Assembly (NCBI GenBank): GCA_020631075.1
Contig: JAHDHX010000003.1
Coordinates: 62,001-126,000 of the forward strand
DNA: 64,000 nt
From: Candidatus Altimarinota bacterium
GTDB lineage: Bacteria > Patescibacteriota > Gracilibacteria > UBA4473
Direction: 5' to 3'
In this document: positions 37,108-41,871 of the stretch, in pieces
Layout: every line of letters begins with the position of its first letter
How positions within the stretch are numbered: the first letter of the stretch is position 1
The notes under the pieces: generated by a model
Seen by the model: only the letters and a program-made list of their open reading frames with translations
Database searches by the model: none
What the model was told of the DNA's origin: nothing
Translations under genes and position numbers: made by a program

Positions 37108-37297
37108 GGTTGTGTTAACATAAACGGTCTCGCAACAAAAATAGGAGATTTTTTGTGAGGGTAGTGCTAGGTTTGCAAAAGGTACCTTCGTACCTTTTGC
37201 AGTTCTCAAGCGCCCCCTCGCGAAAAAGATTCATTTTTGTTCGAGACTTCTTTGTTCAATATATTACTTCACTTACACCGTTTCTGTTAACACTACC
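37108..37297 (-). mobile_element. MITE-like element, family B copy 2
   Basis: A 190-bp element with ends GGTTGTGTTAACA and (complement) GGTAGTGTTAACA, flanked by TA (37106-37107 and 37298-37299). It carries the same central 12-bp hairpin as copy 1, read on the other strand with a CTTC loop. Its right end completes the TAG stop of the canonical photolyase gene. Confidence 0.9.
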
Positions 37298-38808
37298 TAG
37301 TGTATAAGTCGCAGTTGCTTGTCGGGGGGTGGAGGTTTGCGGGGGCGTTTTTTCTTGCGACTGCCGTGCTTGGCGTAGACTTTTTGACTTAATGCCTTGG
37401 TGCTGCTCTTGCGTCTGATGGCAAACACGGCCTCCTTCATGAGCTTGGTTTGGGCTTTGTGGTCGACGATGGGGCGGGGGTAGGCCCCGAGGGGTACTTT
37501 GTCGGCGTTGGCGATTTCGGCCGTGGTGAAGGGGCGGAGCTCGGGCACCCATGTCTTCACAAATTTACAATGAGGGTCCTGGTCGAGGAGCTGCTTGCTG
37601 GGATTATAGACGCGGATGGTGTTTATGCCGACGACGCCTGCTTGCATCTGCAGTTGGCTGAGGTGGATGCCTGGTTCGTAGTCTTGGAACACGCGGGCCA
37701 AGTGGGGGTGGATGAACCGCCAGTCGAGATGGAGGCTGAAACAAGCGAAGCTGACGACCATGGCTCGCATACGGAAATTAAGCCAACCGCAGCCAGCCAG
37801 GCAGCGCATACACGCGTCGACCAGCGGATAGCCTGTTTGGCCTTCGGCCCAAGCGTGCAGGTGGCTGGGGTGGTCGGTGTAGGGGAGGTGCTGGTAGGCG
37901 GGGTTGAGGGCGGTGAATTCCATGGTGGGGTCGCTCTCGAGCCTTTGGATGAAGTGGTCACGCCAGTGGAGTCGGGCCAGAAAACCACGCAGTGACTGGG
38001 CCCATGGGCCTGACTGTGGGTTTGCCTTGAGGTGCTGGAGGCGGACCAAGGTTGCCTGGTAGGCTTGGCGGAGGCTGAGCGTGCCCCACGCGAGGTGCAC
38101 GCTGAGACGGCTGGCCCGTGTGAAGGCTTTGAGCGGGCTGGAGATGCCGCCGCGGTAGCCCACCCCGCGCCGCTGCAAGAAGTCTTGCAGGGTGTGCTGG
38201 GCGTGGTACTCGGTAACGTCCTGCACGGGGTAAGCCGCCACGGGGGAAACGATCGGTGAGACTTTCGGGGGGCGGGTCTTGGCCATTATGGTTTTGGTTG
38301 CCTTTGCGAGCGGGATGGCTGTCGGTGCGGGGAGGACGGGACTGTGGACGATGCGCTGTTGCCAGATCTGGCTGCGGCCGTCGCGACTCTGCAGTCGTCG
38401 GATAACGCCATTTTGCGGGACTTCGCACCAAGTGATGCCGTGGTCGTGACACCAGCGGGCGACGGCACGGTCGCGGGCGTAGGTGAGGGCGTTGCCTGTT
38501 TCCTGATGGCTGTAGATGTGGGTAAACGGGTAGACGGTGCGGAGGCGGTCGAAAGCGGGAGGGACTTCGTCGGTGATGTGGGCGAGCTCGGCCCCTGTGC
38601 CCTGCACGAGCTGCCGAAGGTAGTGGAGTGCCTGGGCCCAGGAAGCGAGGTGAAAGGCCGAGGTGTCTGGGGCTTGCATGAGGGAGGGCTCCCAGATGAA
38701 GACCGGCAACACTTGGGTGCACTCTTGCAGGGCTTTGGTCAGGGCGGGGTTGTCTGACAGGCGCATATCACGCTTGACCCACCAGAGAGCAAGTTTATTT
38801 GGCGCCAT
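37297..38808 (-). CDS. deoxyribodipyrimidine photolyase/cryptochrome
   Basis: A 503-aa protein with the standard order: alpha/beta antenna domain (residues 1-130, ALWWVKRDMRLSDNPALTKAL) and then the FAD-binding helical domain (about 210-460). Landmarks include FLARLHWRDHFIQRLESDP, TGYPLVDACMRCLAGCGWLNFRMRAMVVSF and LDWRFIHPHLARVFQDYEPGIHLSQLQMQAG. It resembles class I-type photolyases and cryptochromes, using blue light to repair pyrimidine dimers or to signal. The basic tail (HGSRKKKRPRKPPPP) could bind DNA. The start overlaps the DUF2256 gene by 14 bp. The last codon and TAG lie at the MITE boundary, so the original C-terminus may have been a little different. Confidence 0.9.
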   Translation of the reverse strand: MAPNKLALWWVKRDMRLSDNPALTKALQECTQVLPVFIWEPSLMQAPDTSAFHLASWAQALHYLRQLVQGTGAELAHITDEVPPAFDRLRTVYPFTHIYSHQETGNALTYARDRAVARWCHDHGITWCEVPQNGVIRRLQSRDGRSQIWQQRIVHSPVLPAPTAIPLAKATKTIMAKTRPPKVSPIVSPVAAYPVQDVTEYHAQHTLQDFLQRRGVGYRGGISSPLKAFTRASRLSVHLAWGTLSLRQAYQATLVRLQHLKANPQSGPWAQSLRGFLARLHWRDHFIQRLESDPTMEFTALNPAYQHLPYTDHPSHLHAWAEGQTGYPLVDACMRCLAGCGWLNFRMRAMVVSFACFSLHLDWRFIHPHLARVFQDYEPGIHLSQLQMQAGVVGINTIRVYNPSKQLLDQDPHCKFVKTWVPELRPFTTAEIANADKVPLGAYPRPIVDHKAQTKLMKEAVFAIRRKSSTKALSQKVYAKHGSRKKKRPRKPPPPDKQLRLIH

Positions 38809-38926
38809 GGCGGCAACGGTTTGAGCAATATTTCACCTGTGGCCAGATGCCCCGACTGGCCCACTGCTTGCGGTTGGTGAAGGGGCGACCACAACGGGCA
38901 CAGATTTTGGTTTCTTTCGGTTTCAT
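38795..38926 (-). CDS. DUF2256 zinc-ribbon protein
   Basis: A 43-aa protein beginning MKPKETKICARCGRPFTNRK and ending VKYCSNRCRHGAK. The four cysteines (CxxC ... CxxxC) and the surrounding residues match DUF2256. This family is often found beside photolyase or cryptochrome genes. It lies 13 bp after the permuted photolyase gene and overlaps the canonical photolyase start by 14 bp, so the three are one operon. Its role is unknown; a zinc-stabilised helper of photolyase is an inference. Confidence 0.85.
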   Translation of the reverse strand: MKPKETKICARCGRPFTNRKQWASRGIWPQVKYCSNRCRHGAK

Positions 38927-38932
38927 TGGCTC

Positions 38933-38945
38933 GGTAGTGTTAACA
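38933..38945 (+). repeat. solo terminal-repeat sequence of the MITE-like elements
   Basis: GGTAGTGTTAACA is identical to the end of the element at 37297. Nothing beyond these 13 bp matches either family and no TA precedes it. It contains the TAA stop of the permuted photolyase gene (complement of 38940-38942). Confidence 0.4.
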
Positions 38946-40058
38946 CTTGCTCATGTCTGCAAAGCGGTCAGTCTTTTGGCAGGCTTTCCAATAGGCAAAA
39001 AATGATTTGTAGTACTTTACGTTGGGGGCGAACAGAGTGCGGGGGTCTTCGGCGTGAGCTGACCGTAGGAAGTGGTCCCAGTGACTGACGGCTGGGTGTT
39101 TTTGGTAGGTTATGTGCGCGTTGCCGATGCCTGTGAGCTGGCGGAGTTCGCCGACGAACACCTGTAGGCCTGCTATTTCCTGCGCTAAATCGAGTATGAA
39201 TTTCATTCTTTTCCCACTCATGGGCCAGGCGGAAAACCGACTGGGCTCAAGCACGAGCACGCGCTGGGCGGGTGACTGGGCGTGCCAGCGGGGGTCAAGC
39301 CCCCAAGGGTGGTAGAGGAGGACTTCGCCTGTGACGCTTGAAACTTCGCTCTGGGGGAGCGAGGTTTGGAGGTTGACCTCGGTGGTGGGGTGTAGCGCTG
39401 GCGGGATGGGGAGGTCGGGGAGCTGGTCGTAGCTATAATCAATGATCGTGTGCTGTTGCTGCGTTTTGGTGTATCGATTGACGTTTTCTTGGTTGGCCCA
39501 GTACTTCTTGCTGGCGAAGGCCCCTGCGCACCACTGCCAGCTGAGGGTATTACTGGCGAGGTCGCCATCCAGCAGATGATAGTACAGCCATTTGGCGGGG
39601 GTCTGCCAGTGGTATTGCCCACGGTTGCAGACGACGCTGGCTAGCCACATCCGAGCGTGGTTGTGCATGTAGCCTGTTTTGACCAGCTGGGTGAGGGCGG
39701 TGTCGAGGGCGGCCACGCCCGTGGTGGCGTCGGGGATGCACTGCGGGAGGCCGTGGGAAGCGACGGGCGACTGGGGGAAGCGAAGGTCGCTGAAAATAGT
39801 GTCACCCTGCACCCGCCAGACGAGCTGGAAAAATTCTCGCCAGGCGAGTTCTTGGATTAGCTTCTCACACTGGGGGAAGGTGTATTTCTCTAAAACATGG
39901 TGCATCACGTCGTGGGGGGTGATCACCCCGTGGGTGAGATAGGGCGACAGATAAGTGACTGCGCCGTCGGTAAAGTTGCGTGTCTTGGCGTATTTCACAG
40001 GGTTGATCGCCTCGACTCGGTGCCAGATGCTGTCGAAATCAGTGGGAAAGTGCGTCAT
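38940..40058 (-). CDS. photolyase-like protein with apparently permuted domains
   Basis: A 372-aa protein that begins directly with the FAD-binding helical domain of the photolyase family. Landmarks are YLSPYLTHGVITPHDVM, LAWREFFQLVW, VKTGYMHNHARMWLASVV and LASNTLSWQWCAGAFASKKY at about residue 187. The usual N-terminal antenna domain is missing. After about residue 225 comes a segment with GEVLLYHPWGLDPRW, RVLVLEPSRFS and LDLAQEIAGLQVFVGEL that reads like an alpha/beta antenna-type domain placed C-terminally. This order is a circular permutation of the normal one. DNA repair or light sensing is inferred. The start sits 8 nt after TATAGT; the TAA lies in a MITE-end sequence. Confidence 0.75.
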   Translation of the reverse strand: MTHFPTDFDSIWHRVEAINPVKYAKTRNFTDGAVTYLSPYLTHGVITPHDVMHHVLEKYTFPQCEKLIQELAWREFFQLVWRVQGDTIFSDLRFPQSPVASHGLPQCIPDATTGVAALDTALTQLVKTGYMHNHARMWLASVVCNRGQYHWQTPAKWLYYHLLDGDLASNTLSWQWCAGAFASKKYWANQENVNRYTKTQQQHTIIDYSYDQLPDLPIPPALHPTTEVNLQTSLPQSEVSSVTGEVLLYHPWGLDPRWHAQSPAQRVLVLEPSRFSAWPMSGKRMKFILDLAQEIAGLQVFVGELRQLTGIGNAHITYQKHPAVSHWDHFLRSAHAEDPRTLFAPNVKYYKSFFAYWKACQKTDRFADMSKC

Positions 40059-40065
40059 GGGGCAC

Positions 40066-40072
40066 TACTATA
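40066..40072. promoter_or_regulatory. overlapping -10 boxes of divergent photolyase operons
   Basis: On the minus strand TATAGT (complement of 40067-40072) is 8 nt before ATG 40058. On the plus strand TACTAT (40066-40071) is 7 nt before ATG 40079. The two cannot be occupied together. Confidence 0.5.
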
Positions 40073-40078
40073 ACGATG

Positions 40079-40408
40079 ATGAAACTCAATGAAAAGCAGG
40101 TTGAGCGTTTGGCCAAGGGGCAGAAGTCCGGTGGGAGGGTTGGGAGTCGGGGGGTGGGGCACCGCCTGCGTCAGCACGAGCAAAAGCAGTTTCGTGTGGC
40201 TCGTGAGCGGGGGTACTTGCTCTGTCGGCGGGGCCAACGCGCGAACCTGCACAATGTGTGGTATCTGTATTGTCAGCACAAAGGGTGTGATTGCTGGGTG
40301 GTCAAACAAGAGGGCAATGACACCCAGTACACGGTGCTGAAAAACCAAACCCCTGTGCACGCTGGCACGAGGGTGGCGTGTCTTTCTTTCATACAAGATA
40401 ACCGATGA
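40079..40408 (+). CDS. small basic protein with Cys/His cluster, photolyase operon
   Basis: A 109-aa protein, Arg/Lys/Gln-rich in its first half (QVERLAKGQKSGGRVGSRG), with a central cluster LYCQHKGCDCWVV and earlier LLCRRGQR. The Cys and His could form a small zinc site. Family unknown. The start ATG at 40079 is preferred to the adjacent ATG at 40076 because of the 7-nt distance from TACTAT. Its stop overlaps the next ATG (ATGA), so it is translated together with the DPRP-type photolyase and probably assists it. Confidence 0.65.
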   Translation: MKLNEKQVERLAKGQKSGGRVGSRGVGHRLRQHEQKQFRVARERGYLLCRRGQRANLHNVWYLYCQHKGCDCWVVKQEGNDTQYTVLKNQTPVHAGTRVACLSFIQDNR

Positions 40409-41871
40409 AAAAAATTGCTTTGGTGTTTCCGCATCAGGTTTTTGCCCAACATCCTGCGGTGCAGGCTGCGGAAGTGGTGTATGTGCTGGAGGAGCCGTTG
40501 TTTTTTTATGATCAGGGGTATGCAATACCCATGCATAAGGCGAAAATAGTGCTGCACCGTGCCAGCCTGCAGCACTATGCGGCCGAGCTGCGAGGGCAAG
40601 GGAAGCAGGTGACGTACCTCGAATGGGCGAAGTACCCGAGCTCAACGGAGATGTTTGCCCAGGTGCCGCAGGGGGTGTGGCAAGTGGTGGAGGTGGATGA
40701 CTTCGTGCTGCGGAGGCGGATAGAGCGGGCGGCGGCGCGGACGCAAAGCCAGATAGTCTGGCACGAGAGTCCGCTCTTCCTCAACACGGGCCAAGAAAAT
40801 CTGGCGTTTTTCTCAGGGCGGAAGCGGTGGTTTATGGCGGATTTTTATAAACACCAACGGCAGAAGCTGAATGTGCTGATGCATGACGGGCAGCCCGTGG
40901 GAGGACGGTGGTCGTATGATGAAGATAACCGCAAAAAGGTGCCGAAGAAGATGATGGGGCAGATACCGAAGGTGTGCCGACCGACTGCGGATGTGTATGT
41001 GACGGAGGCAAAGCGGTATGCTGCGGGGAAATTTGCCAGTCACCCTGGGGAGGCGGAACTGCACTTCCCCCACACGCACGCTGGGGCGGAGGCGTGGCTG
41101 GGCACCTTTTTGCGGGAGCGGTTTGGGCTCTTTGGTGACTATGAAGACGCCATCGTGCGGGGGGAAAACACGCTCTGGCACAGTGTGCTGACGCCGATGC
41201 TCAACATTGGCCTGCTGACACCTGGGCAGGTGGTCAGGGGGGCGCTCGAATATGCGCAAGAGCAGGCGGTGCCGCTCAATAGCCTTGAGGGGTTTGTCCG
41301 ACAGGTGATCGGCTGGCGTGAATTCATCCGTGCGGCGTACCACCAGCACGGGGTGACGATGCGCACGAGCAACCACTGGCAGCACCACCGCCCCTTGCCC
41401 AGGGGTTTTTGGGACGGGTCGACGGGGGTGCCACCGATAGACGACTGCTTGCAGCGGATACTAAAAACTGGGTACTGCCACCACATAGAGCGCTTGATGG
41501 TTTTGGGTGGGTTTTTGTTTCTGTGTGAGGTCGACCCGAGGGAAATCTATCGCTGGTTTATGGCGATGTTTGCTGACAGCTATGACTGGGTGATGGTGCC
41601 GAATGTGTATGCGATGAGCCAGAACAGTGCGGGGGGGTTGATTACGACGAAGCCTTATTTCAGCGGTTCTAATTACATCCTGAAGATGAGCAACCACCCG
41701 CGGGGTGAGTGGTGTGATGTCTGGGATGGGTTGTATTGGCGATGGGTGACCACACACGGTGAGGGGCTGCGGTCAAACCCGCGGTGGGCGATGATGGTCC
41801 GTATGGCGGAGAAAAACCAAGACAAGAACCGCCCGAAGATCGAGCGGGCGGAGTCGATATTTTTTGTGTAA
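40405..41871 (+). CDS. photolyase-related protein (DPRP/FeS-BCP lineage)
   Basis: A 488-aa protein of the deoxyribodipyrimidine-photolyase-related family, to which prokaryotic (6-4) photolyases such as PhrB belong. It has KIVLHRASLQHYAAELR in the antenna domain, SLEGFVRQVIGWREFIRAAY, YCHHIERLMVLGGFLFLCEVDP and WVMVPNVYAMSQNSAGGLITTKPYFSGSNYI. Relatives bind a 4Fe-4S cluster through four Cys. Here a Cys in DDCLQRIL and one in EWCDVWDGLYW remain, but the usual YCxxC after the MS motif is replaced by MSNHPRG. The cluster may therefore be absent or altered. Operon partner of the small Cys/His protein. Confidence 0.9.
   Translation: MKKIALVFPHQVFAQHPAVQAAEVVYVLEEPLFFYDQGYAIPMHKAKIVLHRASLQHYAAELRGQGKQVTYLEWAKYPSSTEMFAQVPQGVWQVVEVDDFVLRRRIERAAARTQSQIVWHESPLFLNTGQENLAFFSGRKRWFMADFYKHQRQKLNVLMHDGQPVGGRWSYDEDNRKKVPKKMMGQIPKVCRPTADVYVTEAKRYAAGKFASHPGEAELHFPHTHAGAEAWLGTFLRERFGLFGDYEDAIVRGENTLWHSVLTPMLNIGLLTPGQVVRGALEYAQEQAVPLNSLEGFVRQVIGWREFIRAAYHQHGVTMRTSNHWQHHRPLPRGFWDGSTGVPPIDDCLQRILKTGYCHHIERLMVLGGFLFLCEVDPREIYRWFMAMFADSYDWVMVPNVYAMSQNSAGGLITTKPYFSGSNYILKMSNHPRGEWCDVWDGLYWRWVTTHGEGLRSNPRWAMMVRMAEKNQDKNRPKIERAESIFFV

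What the first reader, a model, noticed from the sequence alone, without database searches (positions are those of the whole stretch)
38940..40058. Apparent circular permutation of a photolyase
The FAD-binding domain is N-terminal and starts at residue 1; an alpha/beta segment with GEVLLYHPWGLDPRW and LEPSRFS follows it. Normal photolyases have the opposite order. The permuted layout could change antenna binding or make a sensor.
Basis: inference. Interest (0 to 1): 0.65.

Follow-up and report, generated by a model that had tools for sequence, protein, structure and literature searches.

The report
Light-driven DNA-repair enzyme with swapped domains
This bacterial gene encodes a light-driven DNA-repair enzyme whose two halves come in the opposite order from textbook photolyases; that inverted kind was already described in other bacteria, and here it turns up in a distinct branch found in tiny-genome bacteria, with relatives in which the two halves are still two neighbouring genes.

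Summary
Confirmed. The minus-strand ORF 38940-40058 (372 aa) has a complete photolyase FAD domain from residue 1: its AlphaFold model (pLDDT 96.7) aligns residues 1-220 with E. coli photolyase 195-463. The C-terminal ~130 residues, predicted alone, fold like the N-terminal alpha/beta "antenna" domain of photolyases, and a chain of profile comparisons links them to it in the same internal order. The domain order is really inverted.

The kind is known: NewPHL (2020), and cyanobacterial Phr4/Phr5 or fused Phr6 (2022). The window protein belongs to a separate, well-supported clade without Fe-S cysteines, in Gracilibacteria, other small-genome lineages and Granulosicoccaceae, often beside other photolyase genes.

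Beyond the finding: "short photolyase-like" relatives said to lack the alpha/beta domain mostly have it as the next gene: 17 of 21 short loci (plus one that looks frameshifted), 13 of the 17 with a 4-nt stop/start overlap; in a Chloroflexota sample, 12 of 14 carriers. The inverted order is best read as fusion of an operon pair, FAD gene then antenna gene.

Likely function: light-driven CPD repair, perhaps on single-stranded DNA. A sensor role is unsupported.

The parts
38940..40058 (-). Inverted-topology photolyase, 372 aa (P0001)
39399..40058 (-). N-terminal FAD/catalytic domain, residues 1-220
   Evidence: VIA alignment to E. coli photolyase 195-463, Z 17.5; Pfam FAD_binding_7 68-194
38943..39380 (-). 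Linker and C-terminal alpha/beta (antenna-derived) domain, residues 227-372; first strand at residues 245-250
   Evidence: AF2 of the isolated domain pLDDT 89.8; VIA best rows are photolyase N-terminal domains; hhalign
38979..39002 (-). Helix 353-360 in the segment SFFAYWKACQK, in register with the FTPFWR end of the normal antenna domain
   Evidence: DSSP; hhalign alignments
38795..38926 (-). Small DUF2256 protein, 43 aa, 13 nt after the photolyase stop, overlapping the next gene by 14 nt
   Evidence: Pfam PF10013 E 2.8e-14; spacing; conserved next to relatives
37297..38808 (-). Neighbouring photolyase of normal domain order (P0002)
   Evidence: PF00875 at 8-133 and PF03441 at 276-461
40405..41871 (+). 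Divergent DPRP / prokaryotic (6-4)-photolyase-like gene (P0003)
   Evidence: PF04244 E 5.7e-46 and PF03441 E 6.9e-09; conserved neighbour
40076..40408 (+). Small conserved ORF of unknown function between the divergent genes (P0004)
   Evidence: tblastn matches in 5 of 80 loci; no Pfam family at its cut-off

Best explanation
P0001 is an inverted-topology CPD photolyase of the NewPHL/SPL/Phr4-6 kind. The N-terminal domain holds FAD and the lesion-binding pocket; blue light excites reduced FAD, which gives an electron to a cyclobutane pyrimidine dimer and takes it back. The C-terminal domain is the same module as the N-terminal antenna domain of ordinary photolyases, now behind the FAD domain and stripped down, most likely acting as a lid over the FAD pocket rather than as a light harvester. 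The order arose because this lineage keeps the antenna module 3' of the FAD module: in many relatives as a separate, overlapping downstream gene, and in the window lineage fused to the FAD gene. Shown here: domain order, fold and profile links, conserved positions, gene-pair arrangement in relatives. Inferred: electron-transfer repair of CPDs, preference for single-stranded DNA (from NewPHL), the lid role, and the direction of evolution.
For: FAD domain. C-terminal domain: of the 50 VIA rows shown for the isolated domain, 45 are photolyase/cryptochrome chains, including all of the first 22, aligned from their N-terminal domain (7ykn residues 3-133, Z 7.7, rmsd 2.4 over 99; 1dnp from residue 1, Z 7.0). 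Profiles: actinobacterial C-domains vs 20 normal N-domains Prob 96.0; pooled permuted domains vs normal N-domains Prob 93.5, E 2.3e-7, 0 of 60 column shuffles as good; window family vs Methylotenera C-domains 96.4 and vs other betaproteobacterial C-domains 97.5. Stand-alone antenna ORFs vs normal N-domains Prob 98.5, E 2.1e-15, 142 columns; vs the window family 90.4. Gene pairs. Clade support 100/99. Conserved positions in the clade (of 22 rows): E70 21, W73 22, N133 22, M137 22, D164 22, D166 22, N170 22, W174 22, W151 21.
Against: Direct profile comparison of the window family's C-domain with normal N-domains is weak (Prob 11.6, though above all 60 shuffles), so that link is transitive; the B2 subset alone does not match (Prob 0.36, 12 of 60 shuffles as good). 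Foldseek with the isolated domain has no match at E <= 0.001, and its top rows are other alpha/beta proteins; VIA Z values of 5.5-7.7 are middling. The third tryptophan of the class I electron-transfer triad is absent. In the one in-vivo test of such a pair that I read, phr4/phr5 protected E. coli from UV-C but not in a light-dependent way (PMC9426592, section 9). I had no coordinates, so the placement of the C-domain on the FAD domain was not checked.
Confidence: 0.8

Rival explanations
1. The order arose by true circular permutation: tandem duplication of an ordinary antenna-FAD photolyase gene, then loss of the outer halves, giving FAD-antenna; the split gene pairs are later fissions.
For: Antenna and FAD modules of the SPL lineage are both nearer to class I photolyases than to DPRP proteins, so the two modules share one history. 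On the tree, fused and split states need at least 2 changes, and in the quick tree the split rows form one group with the fused Methylotenera rows inside rather than lying at the base, which fits a fused ancestor.
Against: No duplicated intermediate was seen; the separate, overlapping gene pair is widespread and would give the same order by a small indel.
Confidence: 0.4
2. It is a cryptochrome-like blue-light sensor rather than a repair enzyme.
For: The altered position of the C-terminal domain could serve output; the surface tryptophan of the class I triad is missing.
Against: Positions aligned with CPD contacts and with the Asn next to flavin N5 are conserved in the clade (roles recalled); the neighbours are photolyase genes and DUF2256, not signalling genes; relatives (NewPHL) are reported to repair CPDs (PMC13274461, one passage).
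Confidence: 0.12
3. The C-terminal domain is an unrelated Rossmann-like add-on, not the antenna domain.
For: Foldseek alone and Pfam give no significant antenna match for the window family's domain.
Against: VIA ranking, profile chain with shuffled and reversed controls, end-to-end match of stand-alone antenna ORFs to normal N-domains, PF00875 matches in 6 of 7 stand-alone ORFs tested, best E 5.4e-5 but below the curated cut-off.
Confidence: 0.05

Closest known systems
NewPHL photolyases (Emmerich et al. 2020; paper not held, seen as a reference and in citing passages)
   Same: FAD domain first, small alpha/beta (Z) domain last; CPD repair on single-stranded DNA is reported for them
   Different: The presumed NewPHL clade (Rhodobacterales and others, my clade R) is separate from the window clade A (100/98 and 100/99); identity of clade R with NewPHL is inferred from taxonomy and layout, no NewPHL sequence was compared
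Phr4/Phr5 and fused Phr6 of picocyanobacteria (Haney et al. 2022, PMC9426592; pair already suggested as a heterodimer in PMC3441193)
   Same: Inverted order; split and fused states both exist
   Different: Phr4/Phr6 have Fe-S cysteines according to the paper; clade A lacks the motif. No Phr4-6 sequence was compared here
Short photolyase-like (SPL) proteins (Xu et al. 2021; paper not held, seen through citing papers)
   Same: Same FAD-domain lineage, judged by the citing papers' description
   Different: Described there as lacking the alpha/beta domain; here the domain is fused behind, and in most short relatives sampled it is the next gene
Class I CPD photolyase
   Same: Both modules and most active-site positions
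   Different: Opposite domain order; shortened alpha/beta domain; third Trp absent

Membership tests
Inverted-topology photolyases (NewPHL/SPL/Phr6 kind) | Photolyase FAD domain at the N-terminus | tested here: met
   residues 1-220 = E. coli 195-463
Inverted-topology photolyases (NewPHL/SPL/Phr6 kind) | Alpha/beta antenna-type domain at the C-terminus | tested here: met
   VIA on the isolated domain and profile chain; the direct profile link is weak
NewPHL | Groups with characterised NewPHL sequences in a tree | not tested
   no named NewPHL sequence fetched; clade R is only presumed NewPHL
NewPHL | Light-dependent CPD repair in single-stranded DNA | not testable with these tools
   needs enzymology
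Phr4/Phr6 (Fe-S inverted photolyases) | Fe-S cysteine motif after the FAD domain (scored here as C..C.{3,9}CP) | tested here: not met
   absent in 22 of 22 clade A rows; present in all 39 split, short, frameshifted, B1 and actinobacterial rows
SPL as described (no alpha/beta domain) | Protein lacks the alpha/beta domain | tested here: not met
   domain present at the C-terminus
Class I photolyase | Antenna domain N-terminal to FAD domain | tested here: not met
CPD photolyase (chemistry) | Positions equivalent to CPD contacts and flavin-N5 Asn conserved (role of positions recalled) | tested here: met
   E70, W73, N133, M137, N170 in 21-22 of 22 clade A rows
Class I photolyase | Third (surface) Trp of the electron-transfer triad | tested here: not met
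   alignment

The most novel reading that the evidence does not exclude
SPL, NewPHL and Phr4-6 are one lineage in which the antenna module sits 3' of the FAD module, very often as a separate translationally coupled subunit. 'Short' photolyases are then half of a two-subunit enzyme rather than primitive antenna-less ancestors, and the two domain orders of photolyases were fixed by independent fusions of an originally two-gene enzyme.
Probability: 0.35. Interest if true: 0.65.

Novelty: new member of a known kind. Interest (0 to 1): 0.4.

Why it matters
A photolyase that works with its domains in the opposite order tests what the alpha/beta domain is for, since it is kept even when stripped and relocated. 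The gene-pair evidence bears on the proposal that SPL proteins are antenna-less ancestors of the whole photolyase/cryptochrome family: in most sampled short forms the missing domain is simply the next gene. It also gives a natural system in which split and fused forms can be compared directly, including within one genus (Deinococcus).

Tried and rejected
Pfam and PDB profile searches with the window family's C-domain or the Rhodobacteraceae C-domains gave nothing useful; the best rows for the window family were cutinases at E about 0.1. Foldseek with the isolated C-domain had no match at E <= 0.001. The B2 C-domains alone do not match normal N-domains. No solved structure of a close relative was found by sequence with P0001, an actinobacterial SPL or a Rhodobacteraceae relative.

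Loss of an upstream antenna domain was considered and rejected from the upstream DNA. Three short SPL loci of 21 (L040, L044, L047) have no antenna ORF anywhere in the held locus, and two of 14 Chloroflexota carriers (L147, L150) have none within 1.5 kb. An 8-HDF antenna looks unlikely in this genome: no CofH match; lumazine synthase is present. No chromophore can be assigned.

Literature: 'photolyase' with 'circular permutation' (11 papers) or 'permuted' (19 papers) showed no title or abstract on a permuted photolyase; the prior art came. Emmerich 2020 and Xu 2021 were not held, so what they say is taken from citing passages or recalled.

Full report
What is there. The ORF at 38940-40058 (minus) encodes 372 aa. 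It matches photolyase FAD_binding_7 at residues 68-194 (E 3.4e-22). AlphaFold2 with 49 aligned sequences gives pLDDT 96.7 and pTM 0.93. VIA aligns model residues 1-220 with E. coli photolyase 195-463 (Z 17.5, rmsd 3.0, 218 aligned). The FAD domain therefore starts at residue 1.

The C-terminal domain. Residues 227-372 were predicted alone with 22 sequences (pLDDT 89.8, pTM 0.79). Foldseek found no match at E <= 0.001. VIA, a second look at Foldseek's 1000 best chains, ranks photolyase/cryptochrome chains first: 45 of the 50 rows shown and all of the first 22, aligned from the N-terminal domain (7ykn 3-133, Z 7.7, rmsd 2.4 over 99 residues; 1dnp from residue 1, Z 7.0). These Z values are middling on their own; the consistent ranking is the argument. 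Profile comparison supports it by a chain: window family to Methylotenera C-domains Prob 96.4, those to actinobacterial C-domains 96.2, those to 20 normal N-terminal domains 96.0. All permuted groups except the Rhodobacteraceae group, pooled, give Prob 93.5, E 2.3e-7 against normal N-domains, with 0 of 60 column shuffles as good and a reversed control at Prob 0.2. The direct comparison of the window family is weak (Prob 11.6, 0 of 60 shuffles as good), and the B2 subset alone fails (12 of 60 shuffles as good). Alignments run in the same internal order and end with the window's SFFAYWK against the normal FTPFWR-type end.

Relatives. One genome-contig scan gave 90 relatives, 80 kept. They fall into FAD-antenna fusions and short proteins of about 255-335 aa. 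Of 21 short loci examined, 17 have an intact antenna ORF on the same strand downstream, one (L042) looks frameshifted, and three have none. Of the 17, 13 show a 4-nt RTGA overlap of stop and start and 2 a 1-nt overlap; L046 has a short gap and L041 a 450-nt gap. The 17 stand-alone proteins match normal N-domains end to end (Prob 98.5, E 2.1e-15, 142 columns) and the window family's C-domain (Prob 90.4); against an FAD-domain profile they score Prob 0.2. Of 7 tested against Pfam (6 of these 17 plus Deinococcus QL22), 6 match PF00875, best E 5.4e-5, all below the curated cut-off. As a second sample, 14 of 251 Chloroflexota genomes carry a short SPL at E <= 1e-30, and 12 of the 14 have the antenna ORF downstream; two of the 14 are the genomes of L048 and L030, already in the first set. 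On Deinococcus plasmids both states occur: strain QL22 has two overlapping CDS, the second named 'hypothetical protein', while D. wulumuqiensis and strain AJ005 have one CDS. In an Actinomycetota sample 63 of 197 genomes had some photolyase match to the query; 14 loci from it (L105-L118) have the C-terminal domain fused.

Tree. With 13 normal photolyases as outgroup and 87 SPL-lineage rows, the careful tree supports clade A with the window (22 rows, 100/99), clade R (22 rows, 100/98) and A+B2 (99/93). Fused versus split needs at least 2 changes, the Fe-S cysteine motif 1. The order of the deep branches inside the lineage is not settled, so gain and loss are not told apart. Both modules of the SPL lineage are nearer to class I than to DPRP proteins (hhalign scores: antenna 96 against 45, FAD 292 against 129), so the two modules share a history.

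Function. Positions aligned with CPD-photolyase residues are conserved in clade A (the roles of these positions are recalled). The third tryptophan of the class I triad is absent. [quoted passage not shown] For the phr4/phr5 pair, a Synechococcus phr4 mutant survived UV-C 20-30 times less well, and the pair protected E. coli from UV-C without clear light dependence (PMC9426592, sections 8 and 9). I infer light-driven CPD repair for the window protein; the lid role of the C-domain is an inference.

Context. The gene is followed after 13 nt by a DUF2256 gene, which overlaps P0002, a photolyase of normal order; a small ORF and then a divergent DPRP gene lie on the other side. Among 23 clade-A-type loci (L001-L022, L037; some cut by contig ends), 12 have a strong P0003-like gene in the locus, 8 of them divergent and within about 150 nt, 11 have DUF2256 and 7 have a P0002-like gene. 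The arrangement is shared by Gracilibacteria and Granulosicoccaceae, which suggests transfer of a cassette. The window genome (1.46 Mb) has four FAD_binding_7 genes. In the relatives search of 60 genomes, the window's own included, full-length orthologues occur in 3 further genomes, all of the same family.

Prior knowledge. [quoted passage not shown] A heterodimer of the two cyanobacterial genes was suggested in PMC3441193 (passage). I therefore file the window protein as a new member of a known kind, in a clade of its own among the sequences compared. What I did not find in my ten paper searches is the statement that short SPLs of Chloroflexota, Acidobacteriota, Verrucomicrobiota and Deinococcus carry the antenna as the next gene; the key papers of 2020 and 2021 could not be read.

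Noticed in passing
window 37297-41871; L005, L013, L020, L022, L037: A photolyase cassette (DPRP gene divergent from inverted photolyase, then DUF2256, often then a normal-order photolyase) is shared between Gracilibacteria and Granulosicoccaceae.
   Followed up: partly
G000 C3:182510-183112 and C7: A 1.46 Mb genome carries four photolyase-family genes.
   Followed up: no
window 40076-40408 +: Small ORF P0004 with no Pfam family is conserved near relatives in 5 of 80 loci.
   Followed up: no
L105-L118, L095: The actinobacterial fused Fe-S rows have changed active-site positions (D166 to S and H134 to Q in 13 of 14 rows), so they may do something else.
   Followed up: no
L042 around 6867: The FAD gene runs into the antenna domain and then breaks, with the rest in another frame; sequencing error in a low-coverage MAG or a real frameshift.
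   Followed up: no
window 40405-41871 + and 16 relatives: The DPRP group has no column with cysteine in at least 80% of 17 sequences, so it seems to lack the Fe-S cluster of many prokaryotic (6-4) photolyases.
   Followed up: no
PDB 7pub_Ff / 7pua_Ff: A protein of a trypanosome mitoribosome assembly intermediate matches both the FAD-domain and the antenna-domain models.
   Followed up: no
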